Assembly: GCF_014856545.2 (NCBI RefSeq) | Contig: NZ_CP109811.1 | Coordinates: forward strand, 4,396,001-4,460,000 | Source of the DNA: Mesobacillus jeotgali | Lineage (GTDB): Bacteria > Bacillota > Bacilli > Bacillales > Cytobacillaceae | Reading direction: 5' to 3' | DNA: 64,000 nucleotides | Part shown: positions 56,844 through 64,000 of the stretch, in pieces | Layout: each line of letters starts with the position of its first letter | How positions within the stretch are numbered: position 1 is the first letter of the stretch | The notes under the pieces: model-generated | Seen by the model: the letters and a program-made list of their open reading frames with translations, nothing else | Told to the model about the DNA's origin: nothing | The model's database searches: none | Translations under genes and position numbers: made by a program

Positions 56844-57143
56844 TTAAATACCGCTCATCTCCAACATTATCTTTTGAATTGCCTCTTGGTCGTCGTTTTT
56901 AATGGCTTCTTCTAGTTGTTCATTCAATATTTGCAGCCGGTTATTTTGTTGTTTGTTTTGCATTTCCTGATTGAACTTGTCTTGATCTGCTTGTAGGATG
57001 GTGTATATTTGTTGTTCTGTGGCAAGGATGGTTGCTCGTTCTGCTTCTTCATGTTTTATTGTGGCTTCCAGTTCTTCCGCTGCTTGTTTTAATGTTTTTT
57101 TAATGATTTGTTCAGCTTGTTCCCATTCTTCTTTTGAGGACAT
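56844..57143 (-). CDS. Coiled-coil protein (99 residues), nuclease-operon gene 4
   Basis: GGAGTG precedes the ATG. Nearly the whole protein is charged helix (EEWEQAEQIIKKTLKQAAEE; LQILNEQLEEAIKNDDQEAI). It is the last of four closely spaced genes (15-base gap to the previous one) behind the c-di-GMP riboswitch. No family was recognised. Confidence 0.65.
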   Translation of the reverse strand: MSSKEEWEQAEQIIKKTLKQAAEELEATIKHEEAERATILATEQQIYTILQADQDKFNQEMQNKQQNNRLQILNEQLEEAIKNDDQEAIQKIMLEMSGI

Positions 57144-57158
57144 AATTTTTCACTCCTA

Positions 57159-57554
57159 TTAGTCAATATAGCTCTTTATAGGCTGAAGACCCTCCAGTTT
57201 TACATCCTGCATTTTGTTATCCAGTCCATCTAGCGGGTTCTTGTTATAGACGTTCATCATTAAATTGGATGCAAGCGTTACAAGTTGCATATTATTTTCC
57301 TGTAGTCCCTTTTCAAGTACCTTATCGGCAGAGCTATATAATCGTTCACGTTCTGCGAAACTGTTTTCCATGAACTTCTCAAACTTGTCTCTTTCCAGCT
57401 CGATCTTAGCGGTAATGGCATTGAGGCAAGAAATCAGCCGCTGTCTTTCGGTTTCTTCCACTTCTTTTGTCTTCAAGTAACTTGTCGCCGAATTAATCGT
57501 TTCTGTTACAACTGATGCGATATCCAATGCGCTAAAAACATTCTTTACACTCAT
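57159..57554 (-). CDS. Helical protein (131 residues), nuclease-operon gene 3
   Basis: AAAGGGG precedes the ATG. It opens SVKNVFSALDIASVVTETIN, then a long helix (AKIELERDKFEKFMENSFAE). No membrane segment or family was recognised. It could be an immunity or chaperone partner of the nuclease. Confidence 0.65.
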   Translation of the reverse strand: MSVKNVFSALDIASVVTETINSATSYLKTKEVEETERQRLISCLNAITAKIELERDKFEKFMENSFAERERLYSSADKVLEKGLQENNMQLVTLASNLMMNVYNKNPLDGLDNKMQDVKLEGLQPIKSYID

Positions 57555-57585: not shown

Positions 57586-58449
57586 CTATATTTTTCGGAC
57601 TAATTGCTCTAACTGTTTAGTCAGTTCCTGATACTGAGTCGTGATGACAGCTTCGTCCTGAAGAAAATGTGTTGTAAGCGTTCTTTCCAGCATCCTGATG
57701 ATTTCTATCACTTGTTCTGCACCCTGGACGTCACATTCATCGTTAAAATCTAAAGCCAATAATTCTTCCGTTTGCTTCATTTTTTCTTTAAGAGGACGAT
57801 ACAAACGCTCAATGAGCGAACGTTCTTCGTAGATACTTTTTTCGACAAAGGCCAAATTTGTTTTCAATACTCTTAGTCTTCCACACTCTAAATCAAGCTT
57901 CGCCTTTATTTTTTTTGCTTCCTGCAAATAAGCATCTGCCTGCTTCACACGCGTTCTTTGCTGGATTAGATCCATGCCAACAACCCCACTGACAAGTCCT
58001 GCACCCAATGTACCGATGACTGCCGCCGCTGCAGGCATGAAAGGATTGCTATCCTCAGAATGAGAGGAATAAAAAGCCTTCCTTTGCAAATAATAGTCAG
58101 ATATATATTTCTCCACCGTTGCTCCGTATTGACTTTTTATCTCTTCATACAGTTTCTTTTTATAGTCATAATGATCGTCAATTAATGTCTCTACACAAAG
58201 GATTTCCTCGTGGACATCATCGAATAACTCATCATACTTCCTTCGAGCCTTATACAGAATTTCTCCTGCCTCACTATTTTTTTCATAAGATGTCTTATAA
58301 TCGTCGTTGCCTTTAATCACCATTTCTTTAAAGCCGTCCGTCATCAATTCGGTAAACTCTTTTCTTCCATCGCTTAAAATCTGTCCTAATTCTTTTCCTG
58401 AATCCGCAAATATTTTCCCTACTTCTGCTATATTCCTAAAGAAACTCAT
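57586..58449 (-). CDS. Coiled-coil protein with central hydrophobic segment (287 residues), nuclease-operon gene 2
   Basis: AAGGGG precedes the ATG. Long helices surround a Gly/Ala-rich hydrophobic segment (PAAAAVIGTLGAGLVSGVVG, about residues 138-157), as in membrane-active or pore-forming proteins. The opening MSFFRNIAEVGKIFADSGKE resembles that of the nuclease gene (MSFLKTFGKYAGKTAG) in style. No family was recognised. The gap to the nuclease gene is 34 bases. Confidence 0.65.
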   Translation of the reverse strand: MSFFRNIAEVGKIFADSGKELGQILSDGRKEFTELMTDGFKEMVIKGNDDYKTSYEKNSEAGEILYKARRKYDELFDDVHEEILCVETLIDDHYDYKKKLYEEIKSQYGATVEKYISDYYLQRKAFYSSHSEDSNPFMPAAAAVIGTLGAGLVSGVVGMDLIQQRTRVKQADAYLQEAKKIKAKLDLECGRLRVLKTNLAFVEKSIYEERSLIERLYRPLKEKMKQTEELLALDFNDECDVQGAEQVIEIIRMLERTLTTHFLQDEAVITTQYQELTKQLEQLVRKI

Positions 58450-58483: not shown

Positions 58484-59338
58484 TTATCTATACTCGCTTC
58501 CGCCACCCCAAAGCTCACGGCCTCCGGTATGCCCTACGCTTGCGTGTGTTTCCCGGTCAACTAATTGCAGGACTCCCGGCTCTTCATTGTGATGCCACGT
58601 GTATCCCTCTGGATTATCTCCATTGGACAAAGCTTCGATGTCTGCTTCGGTTAATCCTAGTTCTTCAGCTAATTCTGGATCTTCTTGAATATCTTCATAT
58701 AACTCATAGTTTGCATATGTAAAATGGATATAATCGCTTCTCAAATACATATCTTCATCAATTTCCATTTCGTAACTACAGTCAAATACAGGGAAGGAAT
58801 CCGTTACGGTCTCACCGTTTGGAAGCTCGATCGTTTTGGTTTCAAATGGTACTTCTGCATCTGGTAAATTAGATCCATTCTCCTCTGCATCAGCGACATC
58901 GACTCCATCCACAACATCGACAACCCCTACAGCCAAGGCTCCAATAGCAACCGTTTTAGCGATGGAAATCGCACCTTTTTTTACACGGTTATGATCTCCA
59001 TCGACAAAACCGCCAATGACTTCACCGCCATTGTGAACTGTATGTTTAGCAGTTTGATAGACTCCCTTCGCGGTCCTGCCGACAGCACTTCCGATTTCAT
59101 TCAAACCCTGATCACGCTGGGTTGGATTGTCATTAATGATTCCCGCCACAGTCCCCACAGCTCCATCCGCAGCTTGTCCAACCGTAGTACCAGCGAACTC
59201 AGATGCCTTCCTAACCCCTTTTCCAATGTCCTCGATCACATCAGATCCAGCTAACTCCCCAATCACTTGAATTGGTCCTCCGACTACAATCCCAGCTGTT
59301 TTTCCTGCATATTTACCAAACGTCTTAAGAAAGCTCAT
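58484..59338 (-). CDS. Polymorphic-toxin-like protein with C-terminal WHH (HNH/Endo VII) nuclease
   Basis: A protein of 284 residues behind GAGGGG. Residues about 1-160 are Gly-rich with hydrophobic helices (IAKTVAIGALAVGVVDVVDG). The C-terminus has the WHH signature: W248-H249-H250, then ExG-like NEEPG, QLVD, His265 and HTGG (His270), which is a complete putative HNH-type metal site. In known polymorphic toxins this domain degrades DNA of rivals. No signal peptide, LXG or WXG domain is seen. It is first behind a c-di-GMP-I riboswitch; genes of unknown role follow. Confidence 0.78.
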   Translation of the reverse strand: MSFLKTFGKYAGKTAGIVVGGPIQVIGELAGSDVIEDIGKGVRKASEFAGTTVGQAADGAVGTVAGIINDNPTQRDQGLNEIGSAVGRTAKGVYQTAKHTVHNGGEVIGGFVDGDHNRVKKGAISIAKTVAIGALAVGVVDVVDGVDVADAEENGSNLPDAEVPFETKTIELPNGETVTDSFPVFDCSYEMEIDEDMYLRSDYIHFTYANYELYEDIQEDPELAEELGLTEADIEALSNGDNPEGYTWHHNEEPGVLQLVDRETHASVGHTGGRELWGGGSEYR

Positions 59339-59375
59339 GCCATCTACCCCTCCCGGAAAATAAAAAAACTATGAC

Positions 59376-59409
59376 AAAAAGCCATAGCAAGAGGAACTCT
59401 ACTCTATGG
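59376..59409 (-). terminator. Riboswitch expression-platform terminator
   Basis: On the minus strand CCATAG (59409-59404) pairs with CTATGG (59387-59382), with AGAG/CTCT inside, followed by C and five T. The CCATAG arm also pairs with the riboswitch P1. Confidence 0.82.
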
Positions 59410-59495
59410 AAACCTGACGATCCTAGCACACCTCAGCATGCCTTAGACTCACGGCTTTGCGTCCTCCCCTTTCGAGAAGTTTGCCCTTTTCATAG
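59404..59495 (-). promoter_or_regulatory. c-di-GMP-I (GEMM) riboswitch
   Basis: Minus-strand hallmarks in order: P1 strand CTATG (59495-59491), GGGCAAAC (59486-59479), a P2 with GAAA tetraloop (CTTCTC-GAAA-GGGGAG), GACGCAAAGCC, TCTAAGG, then CTAGGATCGTCAGG and P1 return strand TTTCCATAG. All are conserved GEMM-I elements. P1 and the terminator compete for CCATAG, so binding of c-di-GMP should prevent termination, i.e. an ON switch for the WHH nuclease operon. Confidence 0.93.
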
Positions 59496-59586
59496 GATTA
59501 TATTTGGAATTATTTACACATTTATTATATAGTTCTTTAGAACTATAGTAAAGTAAAAATTCCACCTTTTTATGCAATTGCAGAAC

Positions 59587-62458: not shown

Positions 62459-62519
62459 CGAGAACCGTCCCCATGTCTCCTTTCGGCCCCCGAAGAGACG
62501 CGAGAACTGTCCATGTCTC
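62459..62519. repeat. Two tandem copies of the dispersed repeat
   Basis: CGAGAACCGTCCCCATGTCTC (first 20: CGAGAACCGTCCCCATGTCT) and CGAGAACTGTCCATGTCTC lie head to tail and end at the stop of the GYYR-protein gene. Confidence 0.65.
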
Positions 62520-62908
62520 TAAAGATTATTAAATGGATTTCCATCTGGATTGCTCCGTACATACCCGCCACCTGCCTCTAAAGGCCGGTTTAAGTTGGTG
62601 TTGCCGTCGCCGTCCCGGTAGTAGCCTTCAACATAGGTTCCGTCTTGTCGGAAATAGCCGTCAACATGGTGGGGCTGGACGAAATGAATATTGCCTAAAT
62701 CAAGGTGGAAAGGCTGAAACTTACATTTATAGGCATGTTTAAGCGGGTCTTGATAATCCAGAAATTCATTAGAGTAATCGTATCTGTCGTAATTCACTTG
62801 AATCAACTCTTGATGGTTGTCGAAGTTCATTATTTCATTGCGATTCCCGAAGTCCTGGTCAAATGTATCGGCAACGGGCACTAGTTCATTATTCATCCAA
62901 TCGTTCAT
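62519..62908 (-). CDS. Small GYYR/DGTYV-motif protein coupled to the dynamin-like gene
   Basis: A protein of 129 residues. Its ATG overlaps the stop of the dynamin-like gene by 4 bases (ATGA). The C-terminus carries VDGYFRQDGTYVEGYYRDGD and SNPDGNPFNNL, a motif recurrent in unrelated bacterial proteins with unknown function. It has no membrane segment. The tight coupling points to a partner of the dynamin-like protein. Confidence 0.75.
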   Translation of the reverse strand: MNDWMNNELVPVADTFDQDFGNRNEIMNFDNHQELIQVNYDRYDYSNEFLDYQDPLKHAYKCKFQPFHLDLGNIHFVQPHHVDGYFRQDGTYVEGYYRDGDGNTNLNRPLEAGGGYVRSNPDGNPFNNL

Positions 62909-64000
62909 CCAACTGCAACTCCTTCTAAAATTTCATCTTTAATAAAATCATTAAATCCATTTAATTTTTCTTGGTAGGTCCGGATGCTTGCTGCCTCGTT
63001 TTGTTTGGCCTTGATTTCGCCTTTCAGGATGACTTCATAGGAACGAAGCAGTCTGGTGAATTCGTCAAAGGACTCTTCTTCTATATCCTTCATTGCCTGA
63101 TTGATATACTGTTCCAGATGATCCTCCAAGTTATCGACCAGCTGGCCAATTTGCTTATTGGAGTTGGAGATCAATTCAGGTTTGATATTTTCCAGCTGTT
63201 TTTCTGCAAGTTTCTGTGACAAGAATGGAAGACCCGCCATCCCGACAAGCGGCAGAAAGAAGGGACCGCCTAAAAGCATTACCAGAGTACTTGCTCCGCC
63301 TAATAAAACACCCGCCTTAACATTGGCATTACCAGTGTTTGCCCTCAACATAGGTACGGCATCCGTAAAGGCGAGGTCTTCTCCCTTTACCGCCTGGATG
63401 GCAACGGATTGCTTAAATGCCGAAGAAAGTCCTTTTGAAACTTCTGCTTGAGTTTTGCGCAAGAGCTCATGTATATAGTCACTGTATTGATTGGTCCATT
63501 GATTGAAATGAGATTTCACTGCAATTGGAATCTGTGCTTCCACTAGATTTTTAACGTCCGCTCCGTAAAATAGACGAATCCTGTTTTCAATGTCCTCTTT
63601 TACAATGCCGCCAAAATGCTGTACCGATTTCCGCACCATATACTTAATCTCATTCTTGCGTTCCAGTAGATAGTTCTGGAGTTGACCCTTCCAAATGTCC
63701 TGTTTCTCAAACCATTGGGTTACAGCATCCACCTGCGCAGCAAGACTCTCCACTGACTGCGATGACAGTTGCCCAGCTGTTTCAATCTCGCTGAGAACCC
63801 CCTCTGCTATAGCATGGAGCCGCCAATTGAACCGTTCCAGCTTTTCCATGCTGCGTGTTCCACTCTCGATTCTGCGGGCAATCTCCGCCTCGATTTCAGG
63901 AATTCCCGAGTACTGTAACAGTTCAGCATCTCCAGTAACTTTTCCTTCCAGAGCTTCCTTGGCGGACATGGGGAATAATGCTGGTTTTTCTCCACTGAGT
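62905..64000 (-). CDS. Dynamin-family GTPase, partial (N-terminus beyond window)
   Basis: The frame is open to the window edge, reading PALFPMSAKEALEGK just before the internal ATG at 63969. FPMSAKEAL matches the end of a dynamin GTPase domain (VSAK-type G5 region), so 63969 is not the start. The rest is the helical stalk with a hydrophobic hairpin (VLLGGASTLVMLLGGPFFLPLVG) that probably enters the membrane, then GED-like helices. Bacterial dynamins remodel or repair membranes. The stop is inside the ATGA overlap with the partner gene. Confidence 0.82.
   Translation of the reverse strand, partial: LSGEKPALFPMSAKEALEGKVTGDAELLQYSGIPEIEAEIARRIESGTRSMEKLERFNWRLHAIAEGVLSEIETAGQLSSQSVESLAAQVDAVTQWFEKQDIWKGQLQNYLLERKNEIKYMVRKSVQHFGGIVKEDIENRIRLFYGADVKNLVEAQIPIAVKSHFNQWTNQYSDYIHELLRKTQAEVSKGLSSAFKQSVAIQAVKGEDLAFTDAVPMLRANTGNANVKAGVLLGGASTLVMLLGGPFFLPLVGMAGLPFLSQKLAEKQLENIKPELISNSNKQIGQLVDNLEDHLEQYINQAMKDIEEESFDEFTRLLRSYEVILKGEIKAKQNEAASIRTYQEKLNGFNDFIKDEILEGVAVG

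What the first reader, a model, noticed from the sequence alone, without database searches (positions are those of the whole stretch)
58484..59495. WHH nuclease operon under an ON-type c-di-GMP-I riboswitch
A full GEMM-I aptamer and a terminator compete for the same six bases (CCATAG) in front of a WHH nuclease gene and three unknown helical genes. From known families, c-di-GMP-I riboswitches mostly control motility, adhesion or surface genes; a polymorphic-toxin-type nuclease as the target would be unusual. A surface-growth-linked weapon or a phage-triggered device is an inference.
Basis: partly seen in the sequence, partly recalled or inferred. Interest (0 to 1): 0.9.

Follow-up and report, generated by a model that had tools for sequence, protein, structure and literature searches.

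The report
c-di-GMP off-switch before orphan nuclease gene
A Bacillus relative carries an RNA sensor for the signal molecule c-di-GMP in front of a toxin-like nuclease gene; it looks built to switch the gene off (not on, as first thought) when the signal is high, and the nuclease lacks the usual protective partner gene.

Summary
The aptamer is real: Rfam c-di-GMP-I, 76.6 bits, full length, 59495-59405 minus. It leads a 284-aa gene ending in an intact Tox-WHH/Colicin-DNase domain. The link recurs: Rfam puts an aptamer directly upstream in 11 of 39 homologue loci. The ON logic is not supported. CCATAG is not in the terminator; it pairs with the aptamer's 5' strand or, as antiterminator, with the terminator's 5' arm, as in known OFF switches. 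Forcing P1 moves terminator probability from 0.08 to 0.98; all seven WHH leaders tested shift that way. Some non-nuclease leaders show no clear antiterminator. The downstream genes are not conserved with the nuclease. Unexpected: an undescribed Gly-rich N-domain shared with a second tail; an adjacent SUKH immunity gene in only 5 of 71 named N-domain-WHH loci against 8 of 9 WHH loci without that domain; no SUKH gene in the own genome by two Pfam models; Leo-type dynamin genes upstream on the same strand in 6 of 80 named loci. Function is inferred; no structure prediction was accepted.

The parts
59405..59495 (-). c-di-GMP-I aptamer
   Evidence: RF01051, 76.6 bits, positions 1-87 of 87
59491..59495 (-). 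P strand CTATG (5' side of P1)
   Evidence: read from sequence; pairs with CCATAG; forcing it makes the terminator form
59404..59409 (-). A strand CCATAG: 3' side of P1, or partner of the terminator's 5' arm
59382..59387 (-). T strand CTATGG: terminator 5' arm, antiterminator partner
   Evidence: 6 Watson-Crick pairs with A, p 0.0024 against shuffles
59368..59375 (-). H strand GTCATAGT, terminator 3' arm, followed by a T run
59347..59354 (-). ribosome-binding-site-like GGGAGGGG
   Evidence: read from sequence
59524..59552 (-). promoter-like TTTACT-17-TATAAT
   Evidence: such matches are no more frequent than in shuffles
58484..59338 (-). 284-aa N-domain plus Tox-WHH nuclease gene
58889..59338 (-). 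Gly-rich N-domain (residues 1-150), no known family
58487..58798 (-). Colicin-DNase/WHH nuclease domain (residues 181-284)
   Evidence: PF12639 and PF14414; WHH, L, H, HxG residues invariant in 16 aligned proteins
57586..58449 (-). 287-aa gene, first of a cassette found elsewhere without the nuclease
57159..57554 (-). 131-aa gene of the same cassette
56844..57143 (-). 99-aa gene, possible third member (a 105-aa gene holds that place in G057)
62519..62908 (-). 129-aa gene with the GYxRxDGTYVxGYYRDGDGN tail; neighbour, not shown to belong
62905..64000 (-). C-terminal part of a Leo-type dynamin-like GTPase gene, continuing beyond the window; neighbour, not shown to belong

Best explanation
A transcriptional c-di-GMP-I OFF riboswitch controls a gene for a Tox-WHH nuclease. 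At high c-di-GMP the ligand locks P1 (CUAUG with CCAUAG), the terminator GCUAUGGC/GUCAUAGU forms and transcription stops before the start codon. At low c-di-GMP CCAUAG pairs with the terminator's 5' arm and the nuclease is made. The protein joins a Gly-rich, perhaps membrane-associating N-domain to an intact HNH-fold nuclease. Since it lacks the SUKH partner that WHH domains without this N-domain usually have, and since relatives repeatedly follow Leo-type dynamin genes, I infer that it acts in or for the producing cell, held back by its N-domain until triggered, perhaps as a phage-defence or lysis effector, rather than as a classical exported toxin. Shown in silico: aptamer, switching architecture, nuclease motif, missing SUKH, dynamin neighbours of relatives. 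Inferred: ligand response, nuclease activity, restraint, membrane association, biological role.
For: Aptamer. Recurrence by Rfam: directly upstream in 11 of 39 homologue loci; by model R1, 6 of 80 named loci, five of them genomes already counted, and 4 new loci with the non-nuclease tail among 30 order-level loci. Aptamer-bearing rows fall in separate clades (4 changes at fewest, 2 forced by well-supported branches; gains and losses not told apart). OFF logic: a terminator-like hairpin in 16 of 16 leaders looked at; 6-pair A:T stem with p 0.0012-0.0134 in the four group-1 leaders; the same pairing with other letters in group 2, duplexes -12.5 to -13.3 kcal/mol, shuffle p 0.002-0.028, and in G399, 11 pairs at -16.5. 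Terminator probability rises when the aptamer is locked in 7 of 7 WHH leaders. Nuclease residues. SUKH: 5 of 71 against 8 of 9, Fisher 3.7e-7; none in the own genome by PF09346 and PF14568. Dynamins: 6 of 80 named loci, upstream and same strand; five of the six scanned, all five LeoA, LeoB or LeoBC.
Against: The contiguous-stem test fails in all four non-nuclease-tail leaders tried (p 0.42-0.91) and is 0.09 for G071; the duplex test supports G021 and G399 but not G190, G186, G134, G278 or G468 at 0.05, nor group 1 by itself (p 0.05-0.26). Terminator arms were chosen by me from the folds. In G163 and G087 the terminator is already probable without locking (0.84, 0.89). Two of 16 order-level N-domain-WHH loci also have SUKH, and 24 of 68 named ones have some 60-220-aa ORF within 150 nt downstream that could be an unrecognised immunity gene; SUKH was sought by tblastn with four proteins only. 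None of the six dynamin-linked named loci has an aptamer, and two of the six carry SUKH. The loci are related, so p-values are too sharp. No structure prediction was accepted.
Confidence: 0.5

Rival explanations
1. ON switch: the hairpin CCAUAG...CUAUGG followed by CUUUUUG is the terminator, and c-di-GMP relieves it by locking CCAUAG in P1.
For: That hairpin is predicted (-8.6 kcal/mol) and a U5 run follows it in G000 and G191.
Against: The run is broken in G085 and G163, has no counterpart in group 2 or the non-nuclease-tail leaders, and with P1 locked the second, U7-tailed hairpin forms (0.98), so the bound state would still terminate.
Confidence: 0.1
2. Ordinary exported polymorphic toxin whose N-domain serves an unknown export route and whose immunity gene is of an unknown family or lies elsewhere.
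For: The nuclease domain is shared with LXG and Rhs proteins and with SPbeta-like phage proteins; SUKH follows in a minority of N-domain-WHH loci; 24 of 68 have a small downstream ORF.
Against: Only two C-terminal types on the N-domain among 27 order-level loci read (16 WHH, 8 other tail, 3 undecided); no known trafficking domain; no SUKH in the own genome.
Confidence: 0.25
3. The riboswitch is vestigial or its terminator masks the ligand response, so the gene is effectively not c-di-GMP controlled.
For: Bc1 of B. thuringiensis binds c-di-GMP, yet its downstream genes did not respond (PMC11218506, abstract). In G163 and G087 the terminator is likely even without locking.
Against: Aptamer and terminator are both kept across genera, and the free/locked contrast is large in G000, G191 and G085.
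Confidence: 0.15

Closest known systems
Cd1 c-di-GMP-I riboswitch of Clostridioides difficile (PMC9262584, passages)
   Same: Strand order P, A, T, H; terminator from T and H; antiterminator involving A and T; bound aptamer and terminator can coexist; transcriptional OFF
   Different: Cd1 governs flagellar genes; here the target is a toxin-type nuclease and the ligand response is only predicted
Tox-WHH domain, PF14414/PF12639 (PMC3482391, passages)
   Same: Signature WHH, L, H, HxG; Imm-SUKH partner in a minority of relatives
   Different: Fused to an undescribed Gly-rich N-domain; 66 of 71 such named loci lack an adjacent SUKH gene
Leo/Eleos dynamin-like defence genes (PADLOC LeoA, LeoB, LeoBC; Eleos called dynamin-like defence in PMC11811056, passages)
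   Same: Leo-type genes precede six named N-domain-WHH genes, and three lie upstream of the window gene
   Different: The nuclease is not a described component as far as I recall; in the window two other ORFs and the riboswitch leader separate it from the dynamin genes
Bc1 and Bc2 c-di-GMP-I riboswitches of Bacillus thuringiensis
   Same: Same aptamer class in a Bacillus
   Different: Targets are a chemotaxis receptor (PMC11218506, abstract and two sections) and a collagen adhesion protein (PMC4933901, search listing)

Membership tests
c-di-GMP-I riboswitch (RF01051) | covariance-model score above the curated threshold, whole aptamer | tested here: met
   76.6 against 35 bits, 1-87 of 87
c-di-GMP-I riboswitch (RF01051) | binding of c-di-GMP | not testable with these tools
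   needs in-line probing or ITC
transcriptional OFF switch, P-A-T-H order | A strand shared by P1 and an antiterminator; terminator of T and H compatible with the locked aptamer | tested here: met
   this leader; not clear in G190, G186, G278
transcriptional ON switch | A strand is itself an arm of the terminator | tested here: not met
   the hairpin with the conserved T run does not contain CCATAG
Tox-WHH nuclease domain | WHH, L, H, HxG residues | tested here: met
   W248 H249 H250, L259, H265, H270 and G272 invariant in 16 aligned proteins; signature
Tox-WHH nuclease domain | nuclease activity | not testable with these tools
   needs an enzyme assay
polymorphic toxin system | cognate immunity gene of a known kind next to the toxin | tested here: not met
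   no Pfam family above cut-off in the downstream genes; no PF09346 or PF14568 in the genome; unknown families not excluded
polymorphic toxin system | one N-domain joined to many C-terminal toxin domains | tested here: not met
   16 WHH, 8 of one other tail, 3 undecided among 27 order-level loci
polymorphic toxin system | known trafficking domain such as LXG or Rhs | tested here: not met
   no Pfam, NCBIfam or PHROG match to residues 1-150
Leo/Eleos-type dynamin system | Leo-type dynamin genes with the gene as part of their operon | tested here: inconclusive
   dynamin genes nearby on the same strand, but two other ORFs and a leader lie between

The most novel reading that the evidence does not exclude
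A c-di-GMP-depletion alarm: the OFF riboswitch keeps an N-domain-restrained nuclease without known immunity silent while c-di-GMP is plentiful and releases it when the pool falls, for instance during phage attack or on leaving the biofilm; the nuclease then works with Leo-type dynamins at the membrane as a self-directed defence or lysis effector. A riboswitch would directly gate an abortive-infection-like nuclease.
Probability: 0.12. Interest if true: 0.88.

Novelty: new variant of a known kind. Interest (0 to 1): 0.6.

Why it matters
c-di-GMP riboswitches are known mainly for motility, adhesion and surface genes. A recurrent OFF switch before a toxin-type nuclease family would tie second-messenger level to a potentially self-harming enzyme. 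The missing SUKH partner and the dynamin neighbours make a sharp question testable: how do these cells tolerate a WHH nuclease without the usual immunity protein?

Tried and rejected
ON reading: rejected on the position of the conserved T run and on constrained folding.

Conserved operon: rejected. Clustering of 663 ORFs around 40 loci gave no downstream gene shared by more than a few. The own 287- and 131-aa genes were found in none of the other 39 family loci, 80 named loci or 27 order-level loci, but occur together in G027 and G057 (with a third gene in G057), two genomes without a match.

Phage or plasmid cargo: 3 of 50,697 phage records and 42 of 72,556 plasmid records matched; the 3 and the 20 plasmid records listed match the nuclease domain only.

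Known fold: only weak sequence matches to Rhs chains in the PDB. Weak PADLOC hits of the small neighbours to Cmr5, RT_II-A and LmuB treated as chance.

Whole-leader energy: z -0.26, uninformative. Literature listings; the one paper with riboswitch, c-di-GMP, HNH and toxin (PMC9943018, passages) is about antisense riboswitches.

Slips: the leader of G287 (L188) is labelled G288. G134's N-domain gene is frameshifted and counts only as a leader. Model R1 was built partly from the aptamers it then finds, so Rfam calls are cited for the main count.

Full report
WHAT IS THERE. The window lies in a single-contig Bacillaceae genome of 4.84 Mb. Rfam reports one RNA in the window, a complete c-di-GMP-I aptamer at 59495-59405 minus, 76.6 bits, one of 12 in the genome. 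The gene behind it, 58484-59338 minus, encodes 284 residues. Residues 181-279 match Colicin-DNase and WHH, with the residues that define Tox-WHH (WHH, L, H, HxG: PMC3482391, passages), all invariant in 16 aligned relatives. Residues 1-150 are rich in Gly, Val and Ala with a moderately hydrophobic stretch at 122-149 and match no Pfam, NCBIfam or PHROG family.

THE SWITCH. On the transcribed strand the order is P (CUAUG), aptamer core, A (CCAUAG), T (CUAUGG inside GCUAUGGC), loop UUUUU, H (GUCAUAGU), U run. P pairs with A, A with T, T with H. That is the order of Cd1, an OFF switch in which terminator (T, H) and bound aptamer coexist and compete with an antiterminator involving A and T (PMC9262584, passages). 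Before H is made, A:T pairs have probability 0.86-0.92. In the complete free leader the terminator has mean pair probability 0.08, with P1 forced 0.98. The six other WHH leaders move the same way: G191 0.00 to 0.99, G085 0.01 to 0.98, G163 0.84 to 0.95, G071 0.58 to 0.98, G009 0.29 to 0.86, G087 0.89 to 0.98; for the last three, and in parallel for the others, 'locked' means the expression platform folded without the aptamer. Group 2 keeps the pairing with other letters, GGGUUGCCAAA with UUUGGCUAUCC, and G399 pairs 11 bases at -16.5 kcal/mol. The support is uneven. The contiguous-stem test gives p 0.0012-0.0134 in group 1 and 0.015-0.09 in group 2, but 0.42-0.91 in the four non-nuclease-tail leaders tried. 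The duplex test is below 0.05 on both shuffles in 6 of 16 leaders: G071, G009, G087, L122, G021 and G399.

HOW OFTEN. Of 193 family genomes 54 have a match to the protein. I fetched 40 loci from 38 of them. Rfam examined 39 and puts a c-di-GMP-I aptamer (one of them the GGC subfamily, RF03167) directly upstream in 11: seven WHH, four with another tail; the fortieth was searched with model R1 only, without a match. L057 has an aptamer about 850 nt upstream. In 80 named loci 6 have one directly upstream, five being genomes already counted. Among 30 order-level loci four new cases appear, all with the other tail. On a tree of 82 rows, 10 with an aptamer, the label needs four changes, two forced by well-supported branches; this does not separate gains from losses, and the cases are not on the tree. 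299 aptamers occur in the 38 genomes, so chance adjacency is small (about 0.02 expected, my arithmetic), with the caveat of relatedness.

WHAT THE PROTEIN IS. The N-domain is found in 33 of 299 order-level genomes. Of 27 loci read, 16 end in WHH, 8 in a tail with DGT-V-GYYRDGDGN or a variant, 3 are undecided. The same tail ends a 129-aa gene that follows the dynamin genes near the window gene (62519-62908). WHH domains without the N-domain occur in LXG and Rhs proteins and SPbeta-like phages; in 8 of 9 such named loci a SUKH gene follows, against 5 of 71 N-domain-WHH loci (Fisher 3.7e-7). Two of the 16 order-level N-domain-WHH loci (L198, L202) and G042 in the family set also have SUKH. The own genome has no SMI1_KNR4 or SUKH_6 gene. 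Limits: SUKH was sought by tblastn with four proteins; 24 of 68 N-domain-WHH loci have some small ORF close downstream; the loci are related.

NEIGHBOURS. Downstream genes differ between loci. The own 287- and 131-aa genes recur in G027 and G057 without the nuclease. In G071, G009, G087 and L122 a 283-aa and a 496-aa gene follow instead. Dynamin-like GTPase genes lie upstream on the same strand in 6 of 80 named loci: Rossellomorea aquimaris, Paenibacillus sp. yr247, Planococcus wigleyi and Neobacillus niacini with gaps under 200 nt or overlap, Mesobacillus persicus (557 nt) and Halalkalibacter wakoensis (about 660 nt or more) (only ORFs over 150 aa were considered). Five of the six were scanned and match LeoA, LeoB or LeoBC; the sixth (L162) is the same gene as L059's, a Dynamin_N match. 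Dynamin_N matches number 3-11 per genome in the 38 genomes, so at most about one would be expected in 534 kb of flanks. None of the six has an aptamer. Near the window gene three Leo-type genes lie upstream, with a 129-aa gene and two further ORFs between. DynA of B. subtilis is reported to give phage resistance (PMC8844932, start of abstract).

INTERPRETATION. OFF control is a strong prediction for this leader and its WHH relatives. That the protein is a nuclease is likely from the motif. That it acts in the producing cell, restrained by the N-domain and linked to dynamins, is inference. Other targets in the same genome (a SinI-like gene, three small membrane peptides) look by eye like translational ON switches, so the nuclease would be made when those are not.

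NOT DONE. No structure prediction was accepted (19 tries), so no fold comparison. No report of a c-di-GMP riboswitch before a WHH nuclease turned up, or among the 20 of 539 papers listed; only the held open-access library was searched.

Noticed in passing
L008, L009, L010 (own genome C1:4352717, 4468250, 4310824): Three similar membrane peptides of roughly 45 residues, each behind a c-di-GMP-I aptamer whose 3' strand can pair around the start codon; by eye, translational ON switches.
   Followed up: partly
L004 (own genome C1:840506-840591 +): A c-di-GMP-I aptamer leads a small SinI-like gene (likeness recalled, not searched), which would put a biofilm anti-repressor under c-di-GMP.
   Followed up: no
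L063 14645-17959 minus (window coordinates about 66645-69959, beyond the window): A 1104-aa protein joins a dynamin GTPase domain (4.9e-25) to a TcaA NTF2-like domain (4.7e-30).
   Followed up: no
L049, L051, L054, L064, L070, L071: A ComK-family gene lies within about 7 kb of the N-domain gene in 6 of 40 family loci, with a sigma-factor gene near 5 of these; in the 80 named loci with 3-kb flanks only 1 and 2.
   Followed up: partly
L002 (own genome C1:3876978-3877064 -): A Tad/Flp-pilus-like operon (by eye) behind a c-di-GMP-I aptamer whose 3' strand can pair with the loop of a terminator, suggesting OFF control.
   Followed up: no
L042 / L054 (G134): The N-domain gene behind its aptamer is broken by a frameshift in the N-domain (ORFs of 60 and 216 aa).
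   Followed up: no
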